A stretch of 64,000 bases of DNA from an uncultured Naasia sp. (GTDB lineage: Bacteria; Actinomycetota; Actinomycetes; Actinomycetales; Microbacteriaceae): positions 62,001 through 126,000 of the forward strand of contig CAJYYA010000018.1 of NCBI GenBank assembly GCA_913778905.1, given 5' to 3'. The notes below the pieces were generated by a model that was given only the letters and a program-made list of their open reading frames with translations, made no database searches and was not told the origin of the DNA. Each line of letters opens with the position of its first letter. The stretch's first letter is position 1. The translations under genes and the position numbers were made by a program. Below are positions 21,785 through 33,208 of this stretch, in pieces.

Positions 21785-22876
21785 TCAGGGGGTGGTGCGG
21801 ATGAGGCGGGCGGCGCCGATCTTCGAGTCGGCCATGCCGTAGAAGACGAAGTGCTCTCCGTCGATCTCCTCGATCGCGGTGGGGAAGACGACGTTGGGCA
21901 CGATGCCGCTGCGCTCCTCCTCCGTCTCAGGCGCGAGCAGCGGCTCGGACGTGCGGGCGATGACCTTCGACGGGTCGTCGCCGTCGAGCAGGATGGCGCC
22001 GGCCGCGTAGTTGACCTTCTGCTGCTGCGCGAACGCGTTGTCGATCACCCCGGTGACGCCGTGGTGGATGAGCAGCCAGCCCTCGGGAACGCGCAGCGGG
22101 GCGGGGCCGCCGCCGATCTTGACCTCCTCGAAGGCGAACTCGGGGCCCGCGAGGAAGCGGTGGCGCGTCCAGCGGGTGAGGTTCGCCAGGTCGCGTTCGA
22201 CGTCCTCGACCGGCACGTAGCTGAGCCAGATGCTCTGCCGCACGTCCTCGGTTCCGGCGGGCACGCGGACGCCCTCACCGGGGCGGGTCTCGCCGAGGTC
22301 CCACATGGGTCGGTGGAGCACGGCGAAGCAGCGGGTGCCGTCGGGTGCGGTGACCACCTCGGGGAAGAACACCGTGTCCTTGTTGTGGAACAGGCCGAGG
22401 TCGATGTCGAGCGCATCGTCGTACGCGAAGGTGACGGGGCCGAGGCGCTCCCAGTTCCGCAGATCCTTCGAGACGGCGAGCGCCGTGCGGGGGCCGAGCG
22501 GTCCGTAGGCGACGTAGGTCATGACGTGCAGGCCGAGCGCGTCGATGTACGTGACGCGGGGATCCTCGACACCGGCATTGTTCGCGCCGCGTTCGAAGCC
22601 GCGGTCGGGGGCCAGGACGACGCCTTCCCGCTCGATGCCGACGGGCACTCCGTTCTCGACGACGACCTTGGCGAGGCCGACGCGCGAGACGTTGCCGGCT
22701 GACACGAGGCGGGGCAGCAGGTACAGCTCGCCGTCGGGTCCGCGGCCGCTGGCCGGGTTGAGCACGCCCTCGGCTTCGAGGTCGGAACCCTCCAGAGGCT
22801 CCATGATGACGCCCACCCGCTCGAGGCGGTAGGGGACGGCGGTCGCGGTGGGGGTGGCGGTGGTGGTGTGGGTCAT
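21785..22876 (-). CDS. GH130 family glycoside phosphorylase/hydrolase-like protein
   Basis: A 363-residue cytoplasmic five-bladed beta-propeller enzyme of family GH130, whose members phosphorolyse or hydrolyse beta-mannosides. The start LNPASGRGPDGELYLLPRL, GVEDPRVTYID with the proposed catalytic Asp, NKDTVFFPEVV and GWLLIHHGVTG match the family. GH130 phosphorylases use a pair of Arg residues and a His to bind phosphate; I did not resolve all of these here, so phosphorylase versus hydrolase is open. The ATG at 22876 lies two bases after the permease stop, with GAAAGG inside the end of the permease gene. It would act on the oligosaccharide imported by the ABC system. Confidence 0.87.
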   Translation of the reverse strand: MTHTTTATPTATAVPYRLERVGVIMEPLEGSDLEAEGVLNPASGRGPDGELYLLPRLVSAGNVSRVGLAKVVVENGVPVGIEREGVVLAPDRGFERGANNAGVEDPRVTYIDALGLHVMTYVAYGPLGPRTALAVSKDLRNWERLGPVTFAYDDALDIDLGLFHNKDTVFFPEVVTAPDGTRCFAVLHRPMWDLGETRPGEGVRVPAGTEDVRQSIWLSYVPVEDVERDLANLTRWTRHRFLAGPEFAFEEVKIGGGPAPLRVPEGWLLIHHGVTGVIDNAFAQQQKVNYAAGAILLDGDDPSKVIARTSEPLLAPETEEERSGIVPNVVFPTAIEEIDGEHFVFYGMADSKIGAARLIRTTP

Positions 22877-22878
22877 TT

Positions 22879-23796
22879 CTAGCCTTTCACTCCTGATCCG
22901 AGATCGGTCGAGACGAAGTAGCGCTGGAACACGATGAACAGCACGACGACGGGGGCCGCGAGCACGACGGCGCCCGCGAGAATGGCCCCGAACGGGTTGT
23001 CCGTGGAGGACGCGACGTTCGAGATGTAGTTGGCGAGCGACACGGCGAGCGGCTGCAGCGACGCGTCTTTCGTGATGAGGAACGGCCAGAGGAACTCGTT
23101 CCAGGGGCCGATGAAGGTGAGCAGCACGGCGGTCACGAGCGCCGGACGCACCAGCGGCAGGGCAACGCTCCACAGCAGCCGCAGCTCTCCGGCGCCGTCG
23201 ATCCGCGCCGCCTCGAACAGCTCCTTCGGCAGCTGCAGGAAGTACTGGCGGAAGATGATGACGGCCGTCGAATTGATCGCGAACGGCAGGATCATGCCCA
23301 GATGGCTGTCGGCGAGACCGTAGTCGCGAGCGATCAGCACGTAGAGCGGGATCTGCAGCAGCTGAAACGGAATCACCTGCACCAGCAGCGCGAGCGCGAA
23401 CACCGCGTTGCGGCCACGCCATTGCAACATGGCGAGGGCGTATCCGGCGAGCACGCCGAACACCACGGTGCAGAGCAGCACTCCCCCGGTGAAGATGCCC
23501 GAGTTCACGAGCCCTGAGAGCAGGTTGATGCGCTCATTGACGTTCGTGTAGTTCTCCACCGTCAGATTGCCCGGGCTGGGCAGCGCGCCGGCGAGCGAGG
23601 GGTCGGGATCCGTCTGCAGCGAGCCCACGATCATGTAATAGAACGGGAACAGGAAGACCAGCGCCCCGAGGCCCAGGACGACGCCGCGCAGGATGACCTG
23701 GAAGCGGGACATGCCGCTCGGCCGACGGCGTCGGGCCTGCCGAGGCGTAGCCGTCGTGGCGGGAGCGAGCTTCTGCGACACGGTCTCGGCGCTCAT
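22879..23796 (-). CDS. ABC sugar transporter permease (MalG-type)
   Basis: A 305-residue inner-membrane permease of a carbohydrate importer. It has a basic N-terminal tail, six membrane helices and the cytoplasmic EAA loop FEAARIDGAGELRLLWSVALP that contacts the ATPase. The typical MalG C-terminus (FIVFQRYFVSTDLGSGVKG) is present. The ATG at 23796 overlaps the stop of the partner permease by four bases. No ATP-binding subunit is encoded here, so it must share one, such as an MsiK/MalK-like ATPase, encoded elsewhere, as is usual in actinobacteria. Confidence 0.94.
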   Translation of the reverse strand: MSAETVSQKLAPATTATPRQARRRRPSGMSRFQVILRGVVLGLGALVFLFPFYYMIVGSLQTDPDPSLAGALPSPGNLTVENYTNVNERINLLSGLVNSGIFTGGVLLCTVVFGVLAGYALAMLQWRGRNAVFALALLVQVIPFQLLQIPLYVLIARDYGLADSHLGMILPFAINSTAVIIFRQYFLQLPKELFEAARIDGAGELRLLWSVALPLVRPALVTAVLLTFIGPWNEFLWPFLITKDASLQPLAVSLANYISNVASSTDNPFGAILAGAVVLAAPVVVLFIVFQRYFVSTDLGSGVKG

Positions 23797-24755
23797 GAGT
23801 TCCTCTCCCCGGCGAAGCGGTTCTGCAGGTAGGCGATGATCAGGACCCCGATGACCAGGACGACGCCGATCGCGGACGCCACATCCGGCTGGCCCTGCTG
23901 GATGCCCAGCTGGTACATGAGGAGCACGGGAGAGGCGGACGCGCCGTTGGGCCCGCCTCCGCCCGTGAGCAGATAGGGCTCGGTGAAGAGGTTCGCGCCC
24001 GTGACGGTGGAGACGAGCAGCACCAGCAGGGTCGCGGGGCGCACGCCGGGAACCGTGATCGAGAAGAACTGGCGGATCTTGCCGGCCCCGTCGGTCGAGG
24101 CCGACTCGTACAGCTCCTTCGGCACGTTCTGCAGCGCTGCGAGGTAGAGCAGGATGTAGAAGCCGAGCTGTTTCCAGGTCACGTAGATCGCGATGATCGG
24201 CATGGCCAACTGCTCGTTGATGAGCCAGGAGGGGCTCGGCGCGAGCGGTCCGAGGATCGAGTTGACGAGTCCGTTGTTGTTGAACAGGAACAGCCAGACG
24301 CCGACGACCGCGACGCTCGCGGTGATGTACGGGACGTAGAAGCTGACCCGCAGGAACGTGCGGAGATGCACGACCTTGTCGAGCGCCGCCGCGAGCACGA
24401 GCGCCAGGACCACGGTGAGCGGCACATTGATGATCAGGAAGATCGCGATGTTGCCGAACGATCGGATGACCTGGGGGTTGGAGAACGCGGTGACGAAGTT
24501 GTCGAACCCCACGAACGGACGGTCGACCTGCACACCGGGGGCGGCGAAGAAGTAGTCGTGGAACGCGATGTAGACCGAGTACCCGACGGGGAAGGCGAAC
24601 ACCGCGAGGACGAAGATCAGGTACGGGCTGCCGAAGAGGAGCCCAAGCGGCTGGGGGCCGAAGATCCGGCGTCCCCACGAGCGCTTCGGGGTGCCCCCCG
24701 GGGCTCCGGCGCGCTGGGGCGCCGAAGCCTCGGGGGAGCTGACGAGGGCGGTCAT
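23793..24755 (-). CDS. ABC sugar transporter permease (MalF-type)
   Basis: A 320-residue inner-membrane permease, partner of the downstream one. After a basic N-terminal segment (PKRSWGRRIFGPQ) come six membrane helices and the EAA loop YESASTDGAGKIRQFFSITVPG. It follows the binding-protein gene by eight bases and overlaps the second permease by four. Together they form the channel of a class I (CUT1) oligosaccharide importer. Confidence 0.94.
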   Translation of the reverse strand: MTALVSSPEASAPQRAGAPGGTPKRSWGRRIFGPQPLGLLFGSPYLIFVLAVFAFPVGYSVYIAFHDYFFAAPGVQVDRPFVGFDNFVTAFSNPQVIRSFGNIAIFLIINVPLTVVLALVLAAALDKVVHLRTFLRVSFYVPYITASVAVVGVWLFLFNNNGLVNSILGPLAPSPSWLINEQLAMPIIAIYVTWKQLGFYILLYLAALQNVPKELYESASTDGAGKIRQFFSITVPGVRPATLLVLLVSTVTGANLFTEPYLLTGGGGPNGASASPVLLMYQLGIQQGQPDVASAIGVVLVIGVLIIAYLQNRFAGERNS

Positions 24756-24762
24756 GACGGAC

Positions 24763-26061
24763 CTACTTGGTGGCGGCCAGGCCGGTGACGGTCTGCGCGG
24801 CCCCGTCGAGGGCGGACTTCACGTCGCCCTCGCCGAAGATGACGGTCTTGCCCCAGGCGTCGCGGATGGCCTGCAGCATCTGCACCGTGTTGGGTCCGCT
24901 CGGCACCTCGATGGTGCGCGAGGCCTGGGCGCCGAAGGTCTCGTATGCCGGGTTGGCCGAGAAGTAGTCGGCGTAGGTCGTCTGCAGATCGGTGCGCAGC
25001 GGCATCTGTCCGGTGGTCTCGAGCAGAGCCCCGTCCTGCTCCTGGCTGGTGGCGAACTTCAGGACATCCCACGCGGTGCCTTTGTTCTCGCATGCGGTGT
25101 AGAGGCCGACGTTCTTCGCGTCGCTGAAGGTCCACGTCTCGTCGGCGGGCGTGCCGTTCGGCGTGGGGACCGGTACCGAGCCCCAGTTCAGGTCCTTGTA
25201 GACCGAGATGGCCCAGGGACCGACGATCGCCATGGCCGAGTTGCCCGCGGCGAATGAGTCGCCCTGGTACTGCTCCCGGCCCGCGAGACCCTTGTCGTAG
25301 AGGTTCTTCCAGAACTCGCCGACCTCGACTCCCGCGTCGTCCGCGAAGGTGGCCTTGCCGTCCTCCACGAGTCCGGTACCGCCGGTCGCCGCGGCGTACA
25401 GAGGCATGAAGTCGAACTGGGTCTGGAAGAACTCGCTCGTGGGGGCCGGCTGGATCGCGACGGGCGCGACGCCCGCGTCGACGAGCTTCTGCGAGGTCGC
25501 GGTGAACTCGTCGTAGGTCGAGAGCTGCGGGTTCTCCGGGTCGAGGCCCGCCTTCGCGAACATGTCCTTGTTGTAGAAGATCATGACGGGGTTGCTCTTC
25601 CACGGCATCTGGTAGTACTGCCCGTCGGCGTTCTGGTACTGGCTCGCGAGGTCGCCGCTGCGGCTCTCGATGTACTCCTTGCCGTCGGGGAAGCTCGACA
25701 GGTCGACGAGTCCACCCTGGCGCTCGAACTGGCCGACCGCGCTCGGAGCGGTGTTGAAGACGAGACACGGGGCGTTGCCGGCTGTGATGGCCGCGCCGAT
25801 CACCTCTTCGCTGCTCTTGCCGGCCGGGATCTCCTGGCCGGTGATCTGCTGGTCGGGGTTGGCGGCGTTCCAGGCCTCGACCATGGCCTTGCCCCACTGC
25901 ACCTCCTGCTCGTTGTTCGAGTACCAGATGGTGATGGGGCCCTTGGCCGTGAGATCGGTCGAGGCGGCGCCTCCGCCCGAGCAGGCGGTCAGGGCCATGG
26001 CCGCGATCGCGGCGATCCCTACTCCTGCGAGCCGGCGGCGGTGCTTGGCGAGATACGTCAT
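24763..26061 (-). CDS. ABC sugar-binding lipoprotein
   Basis: A 432-residue extracellular solute-binding protein (family 1). Residues 1-26 are a lipoprotein signal (AGVGIAAIAAMALTAC, lipobox LTAC with the modified Cys at about 26) followed by a Gly-rich linker. The mature part starts GPITIWYSNNEQEVQWGKAM, a family signature, and contains KSNPVMIFYNKDMFAKAGLD. It captures a carbohydrate for the two permeases. The ATG at 26061 is preceded by GAAGGAGA; an ATG at 26115 would give a non-lipoprotein extension. It is the first structural gene after the repressor. Confidence 0.95.
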   Translation of the reverse strand: MTYLAKHRRRLAGVGIAAIAAMALTACSGGGAASTDLTAKGPITIWYSNNEQEVQWGKAMVEAWNAANPDQQITGQEIPAGKSSEEVIGAAITAGNAPCLVFNTAPSAVGQFERQGGLVDLSSFPDGKEYIESRSGDLASQYQNADGQYYQMPWKSNPVMIFYNKDMFAKAGLDPENPQLSTYDEFTATSQKLVDAGVAPVAIQPAPTSEFFQTQFDFMPLYAAATGGTGLVEDGKATFADDAGVEVGEFWKNLYDKGLAGREQYQGDSFAAGNSAMAIVGPWAISVYKDLNWGSVPVPTPNGTPADETWTFSDAKNVGLYTACENKGTAWDVLKFATSQEQDGALLETTGQMPLRTDLQTTYADYFSANPAYETFGAQASRTIEVPSGPNTVQMLQAIRDAWGKTVIFGEGDVKSALDGAAQTVTGLAATK

Positions 26062-26111
26062 CGTGTTCTCCTTCTTCGGGTGGGCGTCCGCAGCTGCGAA
26101 CGGACGGGTGA

Positions 26112-27125
26112 TCACGGCCGCGGCGGCGCGGTCGACTTGCGGACGACGAGCCCGGCGGGCTCGAGGTCGACATCTGGGGCGGAGCCGTTCTCGATCAGAT
26201 CGAGGAGAGCTCCGGCTGCGGCCTCGCCCCAGCGCGCAGGACGGGTCCGGGCCGAGGTGAGGGCGGGGAAGACGTGGGCGGCGATGTCCGAGTCATCGAA
26301 CCCCGTCACCGAGAGGTCGTCGGGGAGACGCAGTCCACGGGAGTGGGCGATTCCCATGCCCGCGATCGCCATGGGATCGTTTGCGAACACGATCGCGGTC
26401 GGCGGCACCGATGCGTCGAGGAGGTGCTCCGTCGCCTCGGCGCCGCGTCCGGCGCTGAAATCGGTCTCCACGACACGGTCGCCGCTGATCCCTGCCGCTT
26501 TGCACGCCGCGACGAAGGCGGCGCGGCGGCGTGCTCCGTGGAGGAGGTGCGTCGGTCCGGCGACGTGAGCGATGTCACGGTGGCCCGCTTCGACCAGGTG
26601 CGCGACCGCCTGGGTGATGCCGTCGGTGTCGTCCATGACGACCGCGGGCGCGACCGACCCGGCGACGCGTCCCAACGTGACGGCCGGAAGCCCGAGGTCG
26701 GTGAGCAGTGCAGGGCGGGGGTCGTCCTCCCGGAGATCGGTCACCAGCACTCCGTCGACCCGGCGATCGGCGGCCAGCGTGCGATAAGACGCGGCCTCCG
26801 CCTCCACCGACTCGACGAAGCTCAGCACGAGCACGAGTCCTCGCTCGGACAGCACGCGTTCGACCCCTGCGATGAACGACGGGAAGAACGGGTCGGCCGC
26901 TATGACCTGGGGGTCGCGGGCCATCACGAGACCCACCGCGTAGGAGCGGTTGGTCGAGAGCGACCGGGCCGACACGCTGCGGCTGTAGCCGATGCGGGAT
27001 GCGACCTCGAGGATGCGGTCTCGCGTCTCGTGCGACACACCGGGGCGGTCGTTCAAGGCGAACGACACCAGAGTCTTGCTGACTCGTGCCTCTCGGGCCA
27101 CGTCGAGAATCGTCGGCTTGCGCAT
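26112..27125 (-). CDS. LacI family transcriptional repressor of the carbohydrate operon
   Basis: A 337-residue LacI/GalR regulator. The N-terminal helix-turn-helix reads PTILDVAREARVSKTLVSFA, followed by the hinge helix region GYSRSVSARSLSTNRSY, and then the periplasmic-binding-like sugar-sensor domain (VGLVMARDPQVIAADPFFPS onwards, VTGFDDSDIAAHVFPALT). It heads a six-gene operon and is separated from the binding-protein gene by 50 bases. A 14-bp palindrome overlaps its own predicted promoter, so it probably represses itself and the whole operon until the sugar binds. ATG at 27125 is chosen; GTG at 27128 is equally possible. Confidence 0.94.
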   Translation of the reverse strand: MRKPTILDVAREARVSKTLVSFALNDRPGVSHETRDRILEVASRIGYSRSVSARSLSTNRSYAVGLVMARDPQVIAADPFFPSFIAGVERVLSERGLVLVLSFVESVEAEAASYRTLAADRRVDGVLVTDLREDDPRPALLTDLGLPAVTLGRVAGSVAPAVVMDDTDGITQAVAHLVEAGHRDIAHVAGPTHLLHGARRRAAFVAACKAAGISGDRVVETDFSAGRGAEATEHLLDASVPPTAIVFANDPMAIAGMGIAHSRGLRLPDDLSVTGFDDSDIAAHVFPALTSARTRPARWGEAAAGALLDLIENGSAPDVDLEPAGLVVRKSTAPPRP

Positions 27126-27190
27126 CACTCACCTCGTTCCCGTCGTCGTCGATCAGATCCGCGTCGCTCCCATCGCGACCGTCTCACCAG

Positions 27191-27219
27191 CCTAAACCGG
27201 TTTAGAGGAAACTACGCAA
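27191..27219 (-). promoter_or_regulatory. Promoter of the LacI operon with overlapping LacI operator
   Basis: The perfect palindrome CTAAACCGGTTTAG occupies 27192-27205 and has the central CG step typical of LacI-family operators. On the minus strand a -35 TTGCGT (27219-27214) and -10 TTTAGG (27196-27191) are separated by 17 bases, so the operator covers the -10 and part of the spacer. Repressor binding there would block RNA polymerase. It is about 70 bases upstream of the lacI start. Confidence 0.75.
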
Positions 27220-27603
27220 GCGACCTGGTGTCCACCTGAGAAGAATCGGGCACCCCCCATTCGGGGTGTGAGCCTCGACAACCGACAGACCGAGCTGTCT
27301 ACCTATGAATAGTCCCCAGGTGGGTAGGTCGTACCCCTCCAGGCCCGTCAAATGCCAGGGAAAAGCCGACGACCCACGCCCGCAATGTACCCCGTTTCAA
27401 CCTGAGGATGGCCCAAAACCGCTGGATTTACGGGGTTGAATCACCGCGCATCTGCACGGGTAGACAGTTCTGTCACCCCCACACTGGGGACACCGCTTCC
27501 GTTGTCCTCATTTCGACGGACACGTACGTTGATCTCAGAGCAACCGGGGTACAGCCGGTAGCCACCCCCACCACTGCGCTGGAGCGCGAAAGGATTTTTT
27601 GAG
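27220..27603 (+). promoter_or_regulatory. Gene-free leader/promoter region of the SipW operon
   Basis: No gene is seen in these 384 bases. A plausible promoter for the downstream operon is -35 TTGTCC (27502-27507), 17-base spacer and -10 TACGTT (27525-27530), leaving a leader of roughly 65 bases. Other structure: GGGTA-N5-TACCC inverted repeat at 27323-27337, a small CACCCC/GGGGTG hairpin near 27249-27268, and ACCCCGT (27389-27395) with its inverse ACGGGGT about 40 bases later. A GAAAGGA ribosome site at 27588-27594 is followed by a T6 run before the ATG. Confidence 0.45.
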
Positions 27604-28173
27604 ATGAACAAGTTCCTCACCGGTGCCATCGCCACCGCCGCCGGAGTCGCTCTGCTGATGGGCGGCGCGGGCACCTTCGCCTACTGGAACTCCTCGGCGA
27701 CCCCCGCCGCCTCGACCATCACGGCCGGCAATCTGGCCGTCGCCGACTCCGGCTCGGCCGCGGTCTGGAAGTCGGGCAACACCGTCATCAACCCCGCCAC
27801 CTACAAGGCGGTTCCCGGTGACGTCCTCACCTACACGAAGACCATGAACATCACCGCGACCGGCGACAACCTCGTCGCGACCCTCGGTCTCACCCCCGGC
27901 TCGATCGCCGGCGCCACCAGCGGCGCCGCCGACGTGGCTCTGGCCAACGCCCTCACCCAGAGCGCCGTGCTGACCGCCACCGGCACGGGCATCACCCCCG
28001 TCACCGGCTCGCCCAACACCTACACCGTCGCCGCCGGCACCGCCGGTGTCTCGCAGGCCGTCACCGTCACCGTCACCGTCACCTTCCCCAAGGGCACGGC
28101 CGGGCAGTACAACGACGCCAAGACCGGCGCCGTCAACCTCAGCGGCCTGGCCGTCACGCTGACGCAGAACTGA
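27604..28173 (+). CDS. SipW-dependent alternate-signal exported protein (TasA/CalY-like)
   Basis: A 189-residue exported protein and first gene of a five-gene operon. The N-terminus has the alternate signal seen in SipW substrates: hydrophobic stretch ATAAGVALLMGGAGTFAYW, then NSSATPAASTITAGNL, where cleavage by SipW is expected near the A-T-P region. The mature part is Ala/Gly/Thr/Val-rich beta sandwich, with a repeated TVTVTVTVTF strand near the C-terminus, and lacks Cys. TasA and CalY relatives polymerise into extracellular fibres; it is the likely major structural protein here, helped by a good ribosome site and a hairpin after the gene that would favour it over later genes. Fibre formation is inferred from the family. 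Confidence 0.85.
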   Translation: MNKFLTGAIATAAGVALLMGGAGTFAYWNSSATPAASTITAGNLAVADSGSAAVWKSGNTVINPATYKAVPGDVLTYTKTMNITATGDNLVATLGLTPGSIAGATSGAADVALANALTQSAVLTATGTGITPVTGSPNTYTVAAGTAGVSQAVTVTVTVTFPKGTAGQYNDAKTGAVNLSGLAVTLTQN

Positions 28174-28178
28174 TCCCC

Positions 28179-28207
28179 CGGCGGCCCGGCCCCCCGCGCG
28201 GCCGCCG
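28179..28207 (+). terminator. Hairpin between first and second SipW-operon genes (possible attenuator)
   Basis: CGGCGGCC at 28179-28186 pairs with 28200-28207 across a 13-base GC-rich loop, six bases past the stop codon. There is no T-run. It may partly terminate transcription or protect the upstream message, giving more of the first protein than of the later ones. Confidence 0.45.
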
Positions 28208-28266
28208 AGACTTCAGTCGCGCAGCTCCAGCGCACAGCGAGTAGGAACGGGAGAGGAGACGAGACG

Positions 28267-28830
28267 ATGACCGCACAGCAGAGCCGCAAGGCCCTCCGCC
28301 GCGCGGAGCGTCGCCGTCGCCTCTCCCGTTCCCTCCTCCTCACCGCCGGCGCCGTCATCGCCGCCACCGTCATCGCCCTCGGCGGAGTCGGCGGCACCTA
28401 CGCTCTCTGGTCCAAGGCCTCCCCCGCCATGTCGACCACCACCCTGACGGCGGGAACGGCCTCGATGTCCGTCTCCCAGCCGGACGCCTTCTCCCTGCTC
28501 GCCCCGGGTCGTACGGTCTCCCGGCCGTTCACGATCACGAACACGGGTGACACCGATGTGCAGGCCCAGGTCTCCACCGCCGGCTTCTCCGGAACCCTCG
28601 CCACCGTCGCGACGGTCCAGATCACCGACTCGCCCACCTGCGGTGCCGGAAACGTCGTCTGGTCGCGGACCCCCTCGACGCGGTCGAACGACGGCACGGT
28701 CATCGCCACGGTGCGGAAGGGCCAGAGCAAGACCCTGTGCATGAACATCGCCATCGACTCGGCCGCTCCGGCATCGACCGAGGGCACCACCATGACCAAC
28801 TCCCTGTCGATCGTGGGAGTCCAGCCGTGA
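28267..28830 (+). CDS. Second alternate-signal exported protein (SipW substrate-like)
   Basis: A 187-residue protein with a very basic N-terminus (SRKALRRAERRRRLSR), a hydrophobic helix and the alternate-signal motif ALGGVGGTYALWSKA, followed by a secreted beta-sandwich. The mature part has the DUF11-like or TasA-like pattern GRTVSRPFTITNTGDTDVQAQV and two Cys residues that could pair. It is likely a minor or accessory subunit of the surface structure. It is preceded by GGAGAGGAG and its stop overlaps the next GTG start (GTGA). Confidence 0.8.
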   Translation: MTAQQSRKALRRAERRRRLSRSLLLTAGAVIAATVIALGGVGGTYALWSKASPAMSTTTLTAGTASMSVSQPDAFSLLAPGRTVSRPFTITNTGDTDVQAQVSTAGFSGTLATVATVQITDSPTCGAGNVVWSRTPSTRSNDGTVIATVRKGQSKTLCMNIAIDSAAPASTEGTTMTNSLSIVGVQP

Positions 28831-29519
28831 TCCACCGCCGGCTCGCGCTCCTCGCCACGACGGTCCTCTTCGCCACCGCAACCATCGCCGCCGCACCCGC
28901 CGCGACGGCATCGAACGCACCCGGAAGCGGCCAGACCCTCGTGAGCCTCGACGGTCTCACCTTCTCTCAGGCCCCGGAGGGGTCGCTCTTCGATCCGGCG
29001 ACCCGGGTCGTCCCGGGAGACGCACTCACGGGCACGCTCTGGGTTCAGAACGACTCGACCGGGTACGCCCGCCTGACCCTCGCCGTCACCGATCAGTCGG
29101 GATCCACCGATCTCCTGAATGCGCTGCGCATCGTGCACACCCCGAACGAGTGGCTACCGGTCGCAGCCTCGACCGGTCAGTGTGATGAGATGACGATCGG
29201 TGAGCAGCTCGATCCCGGCGCGGTCACCCGCGTGGATCTCACGCTCCTGATCGACGATGCCCTCGCCGGTCGCACTGCGCAGAACAGCGCGGGCGCCTTC
29301 GCCGTGCGCGCCGTCCTCAGCGATCCCGTCGCGCCGGTTCCGGACGCCTGCGCGTCCTCCACCGTCGTGTCGGGAACCCCGGGAGCCGCCCCTCGCTCGT
29401 CGTCGATCGCGTCGACCGGCGTGGTCGTCGCAGCGCCGCTCGCCGCAGCAGGGGGCGCGATCCTCCTCGGGGTCCTTCTCGGCGCCCGTCGCCGCCGTCG
29501 CGCGGAGCAGGTCCGATGA
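28827..29519 (+). CDS. Secreted surface protein with LPXTG-like C-terminal anchor
   Basis: A 230-residue protein starting at the GTG at 28827, which overlaps the preceding stop. A classical signal peptide (residues 1-29, ending AATAS) leads into a beta-rich domain with the phrase GDALTGTLWVQNDSTGYARL. The C-terminus has the order expected of a sortase substrate: IASTG (about residue 197), a hydrophobic helix and a final RRRRRAEQVR tail. IASTG is close to the LAXTG motif used by class E sortases. It is not an alternate-signal protein itself and may tie the SipW-exported subunits to the wall. No sortase gene is in the window. Confidence 0.72.
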   Translation: MIHRRLALLATTVLFATATIAAAPAATASNAPGSGQTLVSLDGLTFSQAPEGSLFDPATRVVPGDALTGTLWVQNDSTGYARLTLAVTDQSGSTDLLNALRIVHTPNEWLPVAASTGQCDEMTIGEQLDPGAVTRVDLTLLIDDALAGRTAQNSAGAFAVRAVLSDPVAPVPDACASSTVVSGTPGAAPRSSSIASTGVVVAAPLAAAGGAILLGVLLGARRRRRAEQVR

Positions 29520-30250
29520 GCGCCGCCTCGCCCATCGTCGACTCCCCGCGTCGCGCCGCGCGCCTCGCCGCCGAGAAGCAGGGAAAGACGCGGTCGAAGC
29601 GCGGATCCGACCGTCCCTCGACTCAGGAGAGCGACCTGCGTCAGCTCCTCCGCGCGCTCGGAACCGGCATCGCCGGCGCGCTCTTCGCCATGGTCCTCGC
29701 CGTCGCGGCGCTCGTCATCGTCGTTCCGATGGCCGTCGGCGGCCAGGCCCTCACGGTGCTCACCAACTCCATGGCCCCGGGCATGCCGCCGGGGACACTT
29801 GCCATCATGAAGCCGACGCCGATCGACGACATCAAGGTGGGCGACGTCATGACCTACCAGATCCGTTCCGGCGACCCGGCCGTCGTGAGTCACCGCGTGG
29901 TGTCCCGCTCCATCTCGACCGACGGCGAGACCACGTTCATCACACGCGGCGACAACAACGACCTGGACGACGCGAACCCGGTCACCGCGGTGCAGATCCG
30001 CGGCACCGTCTGGTACTCGATCCCTCTGCTCGGCTGGGTCAATTCCGCCCTCACCGGTGGGATGCGCACCTGGATCGTCCCCATCGTGGTCGCCATCTGC
30101 TTTGGCTACGGCGCCTGGGCGTTCACCTCCGGGTTCCGCGAACGCCGTCGGGCCGCGCGTGATTCCGCACGCCCGCGGAAGACACATGGACGTCGTTCGA
30201 GTGCACGCGCGACGGAGGCCCTGACCGACGCGGCCGGAGAGCGCCGATGA
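29516..30250 (+). CDS. sipW: SipW-type (ER/archaeal-type) signal peptidase I
   Basis: A 244-residue membrane signal peptidase. The catalytic Ser is in LTNSMAPGMPPG (about residue 84) and the second catalytic residue is His in VVSHRVVSR (about 125) instead of the Lys of ordinary bacterial enzymes; this Ser-His dyad defines the SipW/ER type. ITRGDNNDLDDANPV is the conserved box that follows. There are two membrane helices, one before and one after the catalytic domain. It overlaps both neighbours by four bases and most likely cleaves the alternate-signal proteins of the same operon. Confidence 0.92.
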   Translation: MSAASPIVDSPRRAARLAAEKQGKTRSKRGSDRPSTQESDLRQLLRALGTGIAGALFAMVLAVAALVIVVPMAVGGQALTVLTNSMAPGMPPGTLAIMKPTPIDDIKVGDVMTYQIRSGDPAVVSHRVVSRSISTDGETTFITRGDNNDLDDANPVTAVQIRGTVWYSIPLLGWVNSALTGGMRTWIVPIVVAICFGYGAWAFTSGFRERRRAARDSARPRKTHGRRSSARATEALTDAAGERR

Positions 30251-31527
30251 CCGAACACCGTCGGCCTCGCGGTCCGCGCAGGGCTCCGCGCATCGCCGTC
30301 GCGTGGGGTATCTCCGTGTTCCTGCTCCTCACCGGGGCAACCGCGGCCAATGCCGCCTGGACCACCGCCACCACCACCATCACGCCCGCAGCTTCGGGCG
30401 GGACGGTGGACGCGACTTTCGGGGGCAGCGCTCCGGGCCCGATCACCTGGACCTCCGCGTCGCACTCCACGACCGTCCCCGTCGCACTCAACAACACCGG
30501 GTCGCTCGACGCGGACTGGTCGTACACCCTCAGCTCGTCGTCTGCCGCCGCGTCCGCGACCACCTTCACCAGCTGGGTGCTCTCCCCCGGCGAGCAGTGC
30601 ACGTCCGCGTCGACCCCGCACGATCAGGTCACGTCGACGGCTTCGGCACCCGTCGCCCTCACCGGCCACTTCGCGAGCGGCGCATCCGTCGACGTCTGCA
30701 CCCGCGCCGCGATCACCGATGCAGGCCAGGTCACCTACGGTGGCCAAACGCTCGTAGTCACCGTCGCGCTTCAAGACTCGGTGGGCTCCTGGACGGGCGG
30801 CCAGAGCTTCGACGTCTCGGTCGCGATCGCGGACGACCGCGCACCCAGCATCCCGACCGTCACGCTCGACCGCGTCAGCGGCTACAGCACCCGGGTCAAC
30901 TGGACCCCTTCGACCGACAACGTCGGAGTCACCGGATATCGCATCTACCGCAACGGCACTCAGGTGGCTCAGGTCGACGCGAACGCCACGCAGTGGACCG
31001 ACGCGACCCTCGCGAACAGCACGACCTACACCTGGGCCGTCGAGGCCTTCGACGCCGCCGGGAACGTCGCCCGCAGTCCAGGGGTGCAAGCCCGCACCCT
31101 GTCGATCGTGTCGAATGCGAAGTACGCGATCTACTACCCCAACGGCAACCGCTGCGTCGATGCCAGCGGTGCGGGAAGAGACATCGGGACGAACATCATC
31201 ATCTGGGATTGCAGCTACGCCGCGAACCAACTGTGGACGATGCGCCCGACCGGCGATGGCAGCTACCAGCTCGAATCCGTCAACTCCACGAACACGGCGA
31301 TCGGCTCGCCGAGCAGAAACCTGAGCCAGCAGTTGCAGCTGTCCGGCAAGTCCACGCCGTCGACCCGCTGGTCGTTCAACGCGGACGGCAACGGCTACCG
31401 CCTGACGAACGACTCGAACCAGATGTGCATGGACGTCTACGGCATGGGAACCGCGAACAACACCGCGGTCACCCAGTACACGTGCCTCGGGAACGCGGCG
31501 CAGTTCTTCCAGCTGCAGAAGCGATGA
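30247..31527 (+). CDS. Exported fibronectin type III - ricin B lectin protein
   Basis: A 426-residue protein, last in the operon. Residues 1-37 are a basic start and hydrophobic segment ending TAANAAWTT, followed by a TasA-like beta domain (to about 195) with TVPVALNNTGSLDADWSY. Then come a fibronectin type III domain (about 197-290: PTVTLDRVSGYSTRVNWTPS) and a C-terminal ricin-type beta-trefoil (about 295-426) with the repeated QxW-type signatures NQLWTMRP, TRWSFNAD and AQFFQLQ. The trefoil suggests carbohydrate binding. It may be the tip adhesin of the SipW-dependent structure; this is inference from operon position and domains. Confidence 0.82.
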   Translation: MTEHRRPRGPRRAPRIAVAWGISVFLLLTGATAANAAWTTATTTITPAASGGTVDATFGGSAPGPITWTSASHSTTVPVALNNTGSLDADWSYTLSSSSAAASATTFTSWVLSPGEQCTSASTPHDQVTSTASAPVALTGHFASGASVDVCTRAAITDAGQVTYGGQTLVVTVALQDSVGSWTGGQSFDVSVAIADDRAPSIPTVTLDRVSGYSTRVNWTPSTDNVGVTGYRIYRNGTQVAQVDANATQWTDATLANSTTYTWAVEAFDAAGNVARSPGVQARTLSIVSNAKYAIYYPNGNRCVDASGAGRDIGTNIIIWDCSYAANQLWTMRPTGDGSYQLESVNSTNTAIGSPSRNLSQQLQLSGKSTPSTRWSFNADGNGYRLTNDSNQMCMDVYGMGTANNTAVTQYTCLGNAAQFFQLQKR

Positions 31528-31584
31528 CCCGACCGGGCGGCCTCCACCGCGCTGACGTCGAAAGCCGTGCGCCGATGGTTCACC

Positions 31585-31607
31585 GGCCGGTACCGAGCCG
31601 ACCGGCC
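31585..31607. terminator. Short hairpin between convergent operons
   Basis: GGCCGGT at 31585-31591 pairs with ACCGGCC at 31601-31607 across nine bases. It lies between the end of the SipW operon and the stop of the deacetylase gene and could serve both. Confidence 0.4.
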
Positions 31608-31636
31608 CGGCTGCTCACCGAGCCCGGCCCGCCCGT

Positions 31637-33208
31637 TCAGCCGCGGGACTTGATGACGCGCGACTTCGCGGCCGAGGTACCCGCGACGACCTGATCGACG
31701 GTCACGAGCGTGAAGCCACGGGACAGCGTCCCGTCGAGGATCTGCGGCACCAGTCGAGCCGTGACCGCCTGGATGTCGTGCATCAGGACGATGCCGCCGG
31801 GCTTCGGCTGGTCGATGGCACGCGACAGGTAGGTGGCGTCGTCCGGCTGCTGCCAGTCGAGTGTGTCCACGCTCCACAGCACGGCCGGTCGCCCCACCGC
31901 GGCGAGAACCCGGTCGTTGTAGGCGCCATAGGGCGGACGGAAGGTCTTCGGCGCGGCGACGCCGGCGTTCTTGATCGCCGCGTCATCGCGCCCCATCTGG
32001 CCGCGGATCTCCTCGTCGCTCTTCGTGGTCAGATCCGGGTGGTTCCAGGTGTGATTGCCGATCTGGTGGCCCTCGTCGGACTCCCTCTTCACCAACTCGG
32101 GGAAGTTCACGACATTGACGCCCTGCACGAAGAATGTCGCCGCCGCTCGGCGCGCCTTCAGTTCGTCGAGGATCCCCGCCGTGTGAACGCTGGGGCCGTC
32201 ATCGAAGGTGAGCGCCAGACAGGCGAAAAGGTTGCAGTCGATGTCCTCCTGGCCACGCCAGGGAGCCGCCGGGGGAGCGAAGGCCGCGCCGGACGACAGC
32301 ACTGCGCGCATGCCGCGGCCGTTCGCCGAGAGGACGCCGTCCGCATGCTGAGGGGCCATGCGCATGACCAGGGGTCGCTCGGCGGGCACGCGGCCGAGGT
32401 CCTCGAGTTCGGGCAGCGTGAAACCGGCCGCGAGCGTGACGTCGAGCGATCCGTCCGCCTCGAGCGCGATGTCCGTCACAGCGGAGTCGAAGCGAGCGTC
32501 GTCCCACTGGGAGAAGTCCTCCTGCGGAGCGTCTTCGAAGGCTCCGGCCTCGATTCGAAGAGACGAGACCACATCCGTCAGCAGCTCCGTGTGAGCCGAC
32601 GCGTCGATCAGGTCGCGACCGCTCATGACGACACCGTTGGCGGAGTCTGCGTAGACGGTCTCCTCAGTGTCCGAGGTGACTCCGCCGTCTTTCGCCGTCA
32701 CGGTCCGCAGGGTCTGCACCAGCACCGAACCGACCGCGGCCCGGATCTCGCACGTCATGACCACGATGGGCCCGGCCGTCTGGGGAGCGAGGACGGGATC
32801 CGCCAGGAGTTCCGATGCCGGTCGCGTCGTCGATCCCTCGATGCAGCCACGCTGATCCGCGTTGAGTTTGGGAGCGTCGGCACGGGGTACGTAAGCAACG
32901 CCGCTCACTCCCGCGTGCGCATCGAGAGCCCGGCGCGCCCGGTCGCGGAGAGCACTGTTGAGCGCAGCGGCACCCGGGATCTCAGCCCAGCGGAGGGCGG
33001 AGGGAGAGCCTTCGGCGGCGGAGTAGAGCAGGCGCACGTCGATACCGCCCGACTTCGCCGGTGCGGCTGCCGAGACCGTGGTCACCGCCATCAGCGGGGA
33101 GTCGGCGGAGGGCGGCTCCCACCCCGCGGTGACGGGCGCAGCGCATCCCGTGAGCACACCCGCGACGACCACCAGGACAGACACGGCGAGGGGACGACGG
33201 CCGGTCAC
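31637..33208 (-). CDS. Polysaccharide deacetylase (NodB) lipoprotein
   Basis: A 523-residue lipoprotein: GTG start at 33208, signal helix and lipobox LTGC (Cys at about 21). The first 300 residues form a domain without a known name, beta-rich with paired Cys. The C-terminal NodB domain (about 330-510) has the metal and catalytic motifs TFDDGPS, IGNHTWNHPDL, RPPYGAYND, LWSVDTLDW and LMHD, so it should remove acetyl groups from a wall or surface polysaccharide outside the cell. The start overlaps the upstream stop (GTGA), so the two genes form a pair. It is convergent with the SipW operon. Confidence 0.9.
   Translation of the reverse strand: MTGRRPLAVSVLVVVAGVLTGCAAPVTAGWEPPSADSPLMAVTTVSAAAPAKSGGIDVRLLYSAAEGSPSALRWAEIPGAAALNSALRDRARRALDAHAGVSGVAYVPRADAPKLNADQRGCIEGSTTRPASELLADPVLAPQTAGPIVVMTCEIRAAVGSVLVQTLRTVTAKDGGVTSDTEETVYADSANGVVMSGRDLIDASAHTELLTDVVSSLRIEAGAFEDAPQEDFSQWDDARFDSAVTDIALEADGSLDVTLAAGFTLPELEDLGRVPAERPLVMRMAPQHADGVLSANGRGMRAVLSSGAAFAPPAAPWRGQEDIDCNLFACLALTFDDGPSVHTAGILDELKARRAAATFFVQGVNVVNFPELVKRESDEGHQIGNHTWNHPDLTTKSDEEIRGQMGRDDAAIKNAGVAAPKTFRPPYGAYNDRVLAAVGRPAVLWSVDTLDWQQPDDATYLSRAIDQPKPGGIVLMHDIQAVTARLVPQILDGTLSRGFTLVTVDQVVAGTSAAKSRVIKSRG

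What the first reader, a model, noticed from the sequence alone, without database searches (positions are those of the whole stretch)
27604..31527. Five-gene SipW operon that ends in a FnIII-ricin lectin
Two alternate-signal proteins, a surface protein with an IASTG tail, a Ser-His SipW peptidase and a lectin follow in one transcript; genes 2-5 overlap by four bases. Known TasA/CalY-SipW loci make extracellular fibres, and small alternate-signal exported proteins beside SipW are known in actinobacteria. The addition of a carbohydrate-binding beta-trefoil at the end and a possible sortase-linked partner suggests a fibre with an adhesive tip and a wall anchor. The domain assignments are from sequence; the assembled structure is inference.
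Basis: partly seen in the sequence, partly recalled or inferred. Interest (0 to 1): 0.68.

Follow-up and report, generated by a model that had tools for sequence, protein, structure and literature searches.

The report
SipW fibre operon with lectin subunit
An actinobacterium carries a five-gene set that probably builds a surface fibre with a sugar-binding subunit and a wall anchor; related bacteria keep the set and often swap the sugar-binding part.

Summary
Families hold: g1 TIGR04089, g2 camelysin-like, g4 Ser-His SipW-type peptidase, g5 FnIII plus ricin-type trefoil. Corrections: g5 is itself a third alternate-signal protein built on the two-cysteine domain of g2; g3 has a related domain by profile comparison, an ordinary signal and an IASTG tail, and the genome encodes a class E (LAxTG-type) sortase. 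The lectin is no oddity: 34 of 68 equivalent proteins (X, window included) in the family carry ricin domains, others LamG, CBM2, PKD or DUF11; 8 of 9 genomes of the genus have it beside sipW. The commonest order is g1-g2-X-g3-sipW (34 of 97); here X sits behind sipW. A strong hairpin follows g1 in most relatives tested (57 of 70). Best reading: a TasA/CalY-like surface fibre with an exchangeable carbohydrate-binding subunit and an anchored base. Fibre, tip position and sugar binding are inferred. New variant of a known kind.

The parts
27604..28173 (+). g1: alternate-signal exported protein, TIGR04089 (exp_by_SipW_III); proposed main fibre subunit; A-Y-W at residues 26-28
   Evidence: 132.5 bits, cut-off 60; A.W in 87 of 89 g1 relatives; A26 and W28 invariant in a 49-row alignment
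28179..28207 (+). hairpin after g1 (8-bp stem 28179-28186 / 28200-28207), no T run
   Evidence: z 0.45, not significant alone; gaps behind g1 in the loci have z <= -2 in 57 of 70 against 28 of 135 other same-strand gaps
28267..28830 (+). g2: alternate-signal, camelysin/CalY-like minor subunit; Cys125 and Cys158
   Evidence: PF12389 27.5 bits (cut-off 22.5); both cysteine columns invariant in 104 g2/X rows
28827..29519 (+). g3: ordinary signal, related beta-sandwich, C-terminal anchor; proposed base of the fibre
   Evidence: hhalign to the g2/X profile, probability 94.4, E 9e-8; model mean pLDDT 76.1; fold matches inconclusive
29406..29420 (+). IASTG sorting-type motif (residues 194-198) before a hydrophobic stretch and RRRRR
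   Evidence: class E sortase elsewhere in the genome
29516..30250 (+). g4: SipW-type signal peptidase, Ser85 / His126
   Evidence: TIGR02228 81.9 bits (cut-off 51.85), NF046067 59.6 (cut-off 190, not reached)
30247..31527 (+). g5 (X): alternate-signal protein with CalY-like domain, FnIII and beta-trefoil
   Evidence: (AlphaFold2 mean pLDDT 90.2)
30247..30366 (+). g5 alternate-type signal with A-A-W at residues 36-38
   Evidence: A36 and W38 in 90% or more of 68 X proteins; A.W in 55 of 57 X, 4 of 65 g3, 122 of 756 other genes; not found by model TIGR04088
30388..30837 (+). g5 N-terminal beta-sandwich (residues 48-197; Cys118, Cys151), shared with g2
30844..31089 (+). g5 fibronectin type III domain (residues 200-281)
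   Evidence: nearest solved sequence chitinase A1 1k85, E 3.2e-10
31102..31524 (+). g5 ricin-type beta-trefoil / CBM13-like domain (residues 286-426)
   Evidence: 1knl Z 22.5, rmsd 1.1, 125 aligned

Best explanation
The operon makes a surface-attached fibre of TasA/CalY-like subunits. g1, g2 and g5 are exported with alternate signals that SipW (g4) removes. g1 is the main subunit, g2 a minor subunit or adapter, and g5 a subunit of the same kind as g2 that displays an FnIII spacer and a carbohydrate-binding beta-trefoil, perhaps at the tip. g3 carries a related domain but an ordinary signal and a C-terminal anchor, and fixes the fibre to the wall through the genome's class E sortase, or to the membrane. 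Shown: genes, families, shared domain, signal motifs, conserved operon, sortase gene. Inferred: SipW cleavage of g1/g2/g5, polymerisation, subunit positions, sugar binding, anchoring.
For: Family matches over cut-off for g1, g2, g4, g5. A.W in residues 16-75 of 55 of 57 X and 87 of 89 g1 against 122 of 756 other genes. g2 and X share a domain with two cysteine columns invariant in 104 of 104 rows; 31 of 104 match camelysin PF12389 at E <= 0.01; g3 matches the g2/X profile by hhalign at 94.4%; g2/X and g1 match over 74 columns around the signal at 96.6%. The five PDB sequences matched by the g2/X profile at E <= 5 include AbpX (0.024) and TasA (0.088, 0.14). Order g1-g2-X-g3-sipW in 34 of 97 loci. 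Domains in X: ricin 34, fn3 17, LamG 2, CBM2 1 of 68. g3 tails: hydrophobic stretch plus basic residues in 62 of 65, an x-x-x-T/S-G motif in 42 of 65; class E sortase 243.4 bits, cut-off 160. Hairpin after g1 in relatives. Precedents: TasA fibres by donor strand, tapA-sipW-tasA in one operon (PMC9674648, passages); SipW-dependent BsaA filaments with a predicted terminator and read-through after bsaA (PMC7395162, passages).
Against: No fibre has been seen. g1 has no solved relative by sequence and is under the camelysin cut-off (17.7 of 22.5). The TasA matches of the g2/X profile are weak, and the best match is an unrelated-looking centrosomal protein (E 0.016). g5 alone has no Pfam match in its first domain and no TIGR04088 match; 5 of 68 X proteins have one. 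The window g3 matches no sorting model over a cut-off (LPXTG 13.3 of 15.9; no NCBIfam match at E <= 0.1); 23 of 65 g3 relatives have no motif. Half of the X proteins (34 of 68) have no ricin match. The window hairpin is not significant on its own. The beta lobe of the trefoil lacks the conserved Asp, by eye.
Confidence: 0.6

Rival explanations
1. Soluble matrix set: the SipW substrates are secreted separately as biofilm-matrix proteins; g5 cross-links polysaccharide by its trefoil and no ordered fibre or tip exists.
For: SipW loci of Bacillus and Clostridium make matrix proteins; 34 of 68 X proteins have no ricin match; 13 of 97 loci have g1-g2-X-sipW without a labelled g3.
Against: An anchored member (g3) with a domain related to g2/X and the conserved order suggest an assembled, attached structure; the Bacillus and Clostridium matrix proteins are themselves filaments.
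Confidence: 0.25
2. Polysaccharide-capture display: g5 is a CBM13-type module held at the cell surface to gather plant or fungal polysaccharide for uptake, next to a sugar ABC transporter operon.
For: The solved proteins nearest to the trefoil by sequence include xylanase and arabinofuranosidase CBM13-type modules; sugar-transport-like genes lie at 21785-27125 (named by eye).
Against: No enzyme in the operon; the neighbours differ in relatives (21 loci hold a glucan-phosphorylase-like gene instead), so the transporter is not part of the unit.
Confidence: 0.1
3. A camelysin-like metalloprotease system, as the Pfam name M73 says.
For: g2 matches PF12389 over its cut-off.
Against: The family name does not show activity; TasA, suggested to derive from camelysins, is structural (PMC9674648 passage). 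No zinc site was tested here.
Confidence: 0.03

Closest known systems
Bacillus subtilis tapA-sipW-tasA operon
   Same: SipW-type peptidase beside camelysin/TasA-like exported proteins; an accessory, possibly anchoring partner
   Different: Here the partner g3 has a sortase/membrane tail, a lectin-bearing subunit is present, and SipW is far from the Bacillus equivalog model (59.6 of 190 bits)
Clostridium perfringens sipW-bsaABCRSD
   Same: SipW-dependent filament protein, accessory secreted proteins, a predicted terminator with read-through behind the filament gene, a putative sortase gene nearby that polymerisation does not need (PMC7395162 passages)
   Different: No lectin and no anchored relative of the filament protein in the passages read; has its own two-component system
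Alternate-signal proteins TIGR04088/TIGR04089 beside SipW
   Same: g1 is a member over cut-off
   Different: These models do not catch g5; the linked lectin-bearing X and anchored g3 did not appear in the papers listed
Class E sortase LAxTG surface proteins
   Same: x-A-x-T-G motif, hydrophobic stretch, basic tail; class E sortase in the genome
   Different: Ile in place of Leu in the window (IASTG); 23 of 65 relatives have no motif
CBM13 / ricin-B trefoils (Streptomyces lividans xylanase domain 1knl)
   Same: Trefoil fold; alpha lobe CVD (Asp305), WDC and NQLW aligned
   Different: beta lobe degenerate; gamma lobe AAQFF in place of NQ-W, by eye

Membership tests
SipW-type (TIGR02228) signal peptidase | score over the family cut-off | tested here: met
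   81.9 bits, cut-off 51.85
SipW-type (TIGR02228) signal peptidase | Ser-His active pair | tested here: met
   Ser85, His126 in g4; in 103 SipW rows a His motif in 102 and a stricter Ser-Met pattern in 78
SipW-type (TIGR02228) signal peptidase | cleaves the neighbouring alternate-signal proteins | not testable with these tools
   needs a deletion strain
Bacillus SipW equivalog NF046067 | score over cut-off | tested here: not met
   59.6 of 190 bits
TIGR04089 exported protein (g1) | score over cut-off | tested here: met
   132.5 of 60 bits
Camelysin / TasA / CalY (PF12389) | score over the Pfam cut-off, g2 | tested here: met
   27.5 of 22.5 bits
Camelysin / TasA / CalY (PF12389) | score over the Pfam cut-off, g1 | tested here: not met
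   17.7 of 22.5 bits
Camelysin / TasA / CalY (PF12389) | g5 and g3 domains belong to the superfamily | tested here: inconclusive
   g5 first domain alone no Pfam match; joint g2/X profile reaches TasA at E 0.088 and 0.14; g3 model vs 8aur Z 7.8, rmsd 3.2, 126 aligned, tied with pilins and others
Camelysin / TasA / CalY (PF12389) | forms fibres | not testable with these tools
   needs microscopy
Ricin-type beta-trefoil lectin | score over cut-off and trefoil fold | tested here: met
   model matches trefoils, e.g. 3pg0 Z 25.6, rmsd 1.2, 136 aligned
Ricin-type beta-trefoil lectin | sugar binding | not testable with these tools
   alpha-lobe residues align with CBM13
Sortase-anchored surface protein (g3) | score over a sorting-signal model's cut-off | tested here: not met
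   LPXTG_anchor 13.3 of 15.9 bits; no NCBIfam match at E <= 0.1
Sortase-anchored surface protein (g3) | sorting motif, hydrophobic stretch, basic tail | tested here: met
   IASTG, hydropathy 2.34, 6 basic residues
Sortase-anchored surface protein (g3) | matching sortase in the genome | tested here: met
   class E sortase NF033747 243.4 of 160 bits

The most novel reading that the evidence does not exclude
Microbacteriaceae build a distinct kind of Gram-positive pilus: a SipW-processed TasA-like shaft with an exchangeable, often lectin-bearing tip subunit and a class E sortase-anchored base with a related domain, so that adhesion specificity evolves by swapping one gene of the operon.
Probability: 0.4. 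Interest if true: 0.72.

Novelty: new variant of a known kind. Interest (0 to 1): 0.56.

Why it matters
If right, a widespread actinobacterial family has a compact fibre system with base, shaft and swappable sugar-binding subunit that the family models used here do not name as such. It would explain why SipW loci outside Bacillus carry several substrates, and makes adhesion specificity in these bacteria testable gene by gene.

Tried and rejected
Solved-structure sequence search of g1 alone and of its 49-row alignment: one chance-level match each. Fold search of g3: many beta-sandwich proteins near Z 7-9, TasA among them, no decision. Consensus promoter and terminator scans of 27100-31700 found none. 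The protein search of plasmids with g5 found 17 records, none covering 80% of it; the ten listed are FnIII- or trefoil-length pieces. The idea that the lectin is a stray neighbour was rejected. That the g1-g2 gap holds a canonical terminator is not supported (TTTT in 11 of 70 gaps behind g1).

Possible horizontal origin: the window SipW groups with those of G168, G114, G236, G011, G205, G093 and G003/L113 (92/98, not a starred fork, bootstrap not settled) and not with its own genus; g1 identity is 60-67% to L036, L037, L038, L075 but 40-42% to the four same-genus rows in that alignment. Suggestive only.

Rows dropped and limits: X alignment 68 of 76 candidates (eight dropped by eye as other genes); g3 alignment 62 of 65; g2/X alignment 104 of 128; g1 alignment 49 of 89. 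Four of 101 loci had no SipW in the gene tiling and are left out of the order counts; in 10 of the 97 left only sipW was labelled in the run, partly through failures of my gene caller. Of 161 of 249 genomes with a SipW match only the 100 best non-own places were fetched. The named set (80 kept of 259) overlaps the unnamed one and is not added to it. The loci of other families were read with profiles trained on this family, so distant X proteins may be missed.
Full report
Observation. The window holds five + strand genes at 27604-28173, 28267-28830, 28827-29519 (GTG start), 29516-30250 and 30247-31527. Genes 2-5 overlap by exactly four bases each; genes 1 and 2 are 93 bases apart. Profile searches give g1 TIGR04089 (132.5 bits, cut-off 60) and TIGR04088; g2 camelysin PF12389 (27.5, cut-off 22.5); g3 nothing over a cut-off; g4 TIGR02228 (81.9, cut-off 51.85); g5 ricin-type trefoil and FnIII over cut-off. 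SipW has Ser85 and His126.

Organism. The window lies in a 3.2-Mb genome of 23 contigs. One same-genus genome, G232, has a contig of 1,527,026 bases, the length of NZ_JAFMSZ010000001.1 of Naasia sp. SYSU D00057, which holds the matching locus at the same place. So the window's genus is, by this inference, that of this Naasia strain.

Conservation of the operon. Of 249 genomes of the family, 161 have a SipW match. I fetched the 100 best non-own places and called genes with a codon-usage script. g1-like ORFs occur in 98 of 101 loci, window included. In 97 loci with SipW in the tiling, 34 have the order g1-g2-X-g3-sipW, 13 g1-g2-X-sipW, 8 g1-X-g3-sipW, and 10 have only sipW labelled; the rest are other orders. 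An X of 250 aa or more that matches a g5 or g2 profile lies behind sipW only in the window; but shorter g2-like genes lie behind it in L115, L117 and L118, and in L125 and L131 sipW comes first with an unlabelled 328-aa gene before g3. Among 79 named loci, SipW lies in 75 and the other four end at a contig end; 33 of 79 hold a ricin-matching gene, among them Cryobacterium, Frigoribacterium, Curtobacterium and Naasia, and also Rarobacter faecitabidus (L228), by recall outside the Microbacteriaceae; the Clavibacter and Microbacterium loci have X without ricin match. One, L224 of Cryobacterium sp. Y11, has g1-sipW-g2-X. In the order, TIGR04089 exceeds its cut-off in 33 of 248 genomes, some of this family; of 20 such loci from other families, 19 have SipW near g1 and the twentieth is cut at a contig end, one has a ricin-matching X (L149) and one an FnIII-matching X (L148). 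The lectin-bearing form is thus mainly, not only, a feature of this family.

What g5 is. X proteins, g5 among them, carry an alternate-type signal: A36 and W38 are kept in 90% or more of 68, and A.W occurs in residues 16-75 of 55 of 57 X, 87 of 89 g1 and 43 of 71 g2, but 4 of 65 g3 and 122 of 756 other genes. After the signal comes a domain shared with g2, with two cysteine columns invariant in 104 of 104 rows. The part behind it varies: RicinB_lectin_2 in 34 and Ricin_B in 34 of 68, fn3 in 17, DUF11 in 5, LamG in 2, PKD in 2, CBM2 in 1. All 9 held genomes of the genus have SipW; 8 have a ricin/FnIII X beside it (window, L042, L067, L109, L112, L135, L138, and L134 where X is in pieces), and the ninth (L137) has an X without ricin or FnIII match whose end looks LamG-like by eye. 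With my own profile 35 of 72 X match ricin against 3 of 741 other genes of the loci; 10 of the 72 had been counted as X because of a g5-profile match, and of the other 62 there are 29. The own genome has ricin matches at four places in all. The AlphaFold2 model of g5 is confident (mean pLDDT 90.2); its trefoil matches known trefoils (3pg0 Z 25.6, rmsd 1.2, 136 aligned; 1knl Z 22.5, rmsd 1.1, 125 aligned). Against the xylanase CBM13 the alpha lobe keeps CVD (Asp305), WDC and NQLW; the gamma lobe keeps CMDV and YTC but has AAQFF; the beta lobe is degenerate (by eye). One to two sugar sites are plausible; that these residues bind sugar is recalled knowledge of CBM13.

What g3 is. g3 relatives have a hydrophobic C-terminal stretch followed by basic residues in 62 of 65 and an x-x-x-T/S-G motif in 42 of 65, 26 of them with Ala in second place. 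At E <= 0.1, two NCBIfam LAxTG-type models match 23 and 20 of 62 g3 proteins and LPXTG_anchor 18, but none matches the window g3. The window tail is IASTG. The genome encodes a class E sortase (243.4 bits, cut-off 160) among three sortase matches; class E enzymes are reported to use LAXTG signals (PMC5148588, abstract and passages). The g3 domain is related to the g2/X domain by profile comparison (94.4%, E 9e-8). The g3 model (pLDDT 76.1) is a beta-sandwich; TasA 8aur appears at Z 7.8 but tied with pilins and others, which decides nothing alone.

Kinship to TasA. 31 of 104 g2/X domains match camelysin PF12389 at E <= 0.01. Their joint profile finds five PDB sequences at E <= 5: a CEP192 domain (0.016), AbpX (0.024), TasA (0.088 and 0.14) and an ammonia monooxygenase subunit (2.3). 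Weak but consistent. g1 and g2/X profiles match over 74 columns around the signal (96.6%).

Expression hint. The g1-g2 gap has a median of 104 bases (n 83). Gaps of 50-260 bases behind g1 hold a strong hairpin: z <= -2 in 57 of 70, against 28 of 135 other same-strand gaps; an unbroken stem of 8 or more in 60 of 70 against 45 of 135; TTTT in 11 of 70. Coding stretches as control gave 5 of 97. The window has an 8-bp stem there, but its folding energy is not unusual (z 0.45). In C. perfringens a predicted terminator with read-through follows bsaA, giving a short sipW-bsaA message (PMC7395162 passages). I infer that g1 is made in excess, as a shaft subunit would be.

Mechanism. By analogy with TasA, where the N-terminal strand of one subunit completes the next (PMC9674648 passages), I propose that g3 is the anchored base, g1 the shaft, g2 an adapter and g5 a subunit that presents the trefoil, possibly at the tip. 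Shown: genes, families, shared domains, signal motifs, conserved operon, sortase gene. Inferred: cleavage, polymerisation, positions, sugar binding, anchoring. Confidence 0.6 for the general reading, less for the tip.

Literature. Searches for SipW with actinobacteria and TasA, for the alternate-signal names, for SipW with Microbacteriaceae genera, for SipW with lectin, and for the model names listed no paper whose title or abstract start describes an actinobacterial SipW-lectin operon. The lists show 25 of 921 and 25 of 2,306 papers. I read passages of three papers and no whole paper, and the library lacks most subscription journals.

Verdict. New variant of a known kind: a SipW/TasA-type locus whose commonest form in this family includes an exchangeable, often lectin-bearing subunit and an anchored protein with a related domain.

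Noticed in passing
G000 contig C2 17438-17734 and around; L139 3193-7146: A second SipW locus in the same genome: an alternate-signal protein (TIGR04088 25 bits, cut-off 19), a SipW-like peptidase (43.3 bits, under the cut-off), a g3-like protein ending in LAETG, and a choice-of-anchor G protein (178.3 bits, cut-off 45) whose start also looks like an alternate signal by eye.
   Followed up: partly
window 28179-28207 and the gaps behind g1 in relatives: A strong hairpin behind the first SipW substrate in 57 of 70 gaps tested, mostly without a T run.
   Followed up: partly
21 loci, e.g. L034, L036, L039, L040, L045, L046, L049: In 21 fetched loci an about 850-aa protein, most beginning MKAIRRFTV, lies near the operon, often right behind sipW; I take it by recall for an alpha-glucan phosphorylase. 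Not so in the window.
   Followed up: no
L122, L123, L128, L129, L130, L132: A separate SipW subclass lies right behind a 428-aa protein that looks like adenylosuccinate synthetase by eye, with g1-like genes further downstream.
   Followed up: no
window 21785-27125 (-) and 31637-33208 (-): Flanks: sugar ABC transporter genes with a LacI-type regulator, and a polysaccharide-deacetylase-like protein, named by eye.
   Followed up: no
   Followed up: partly
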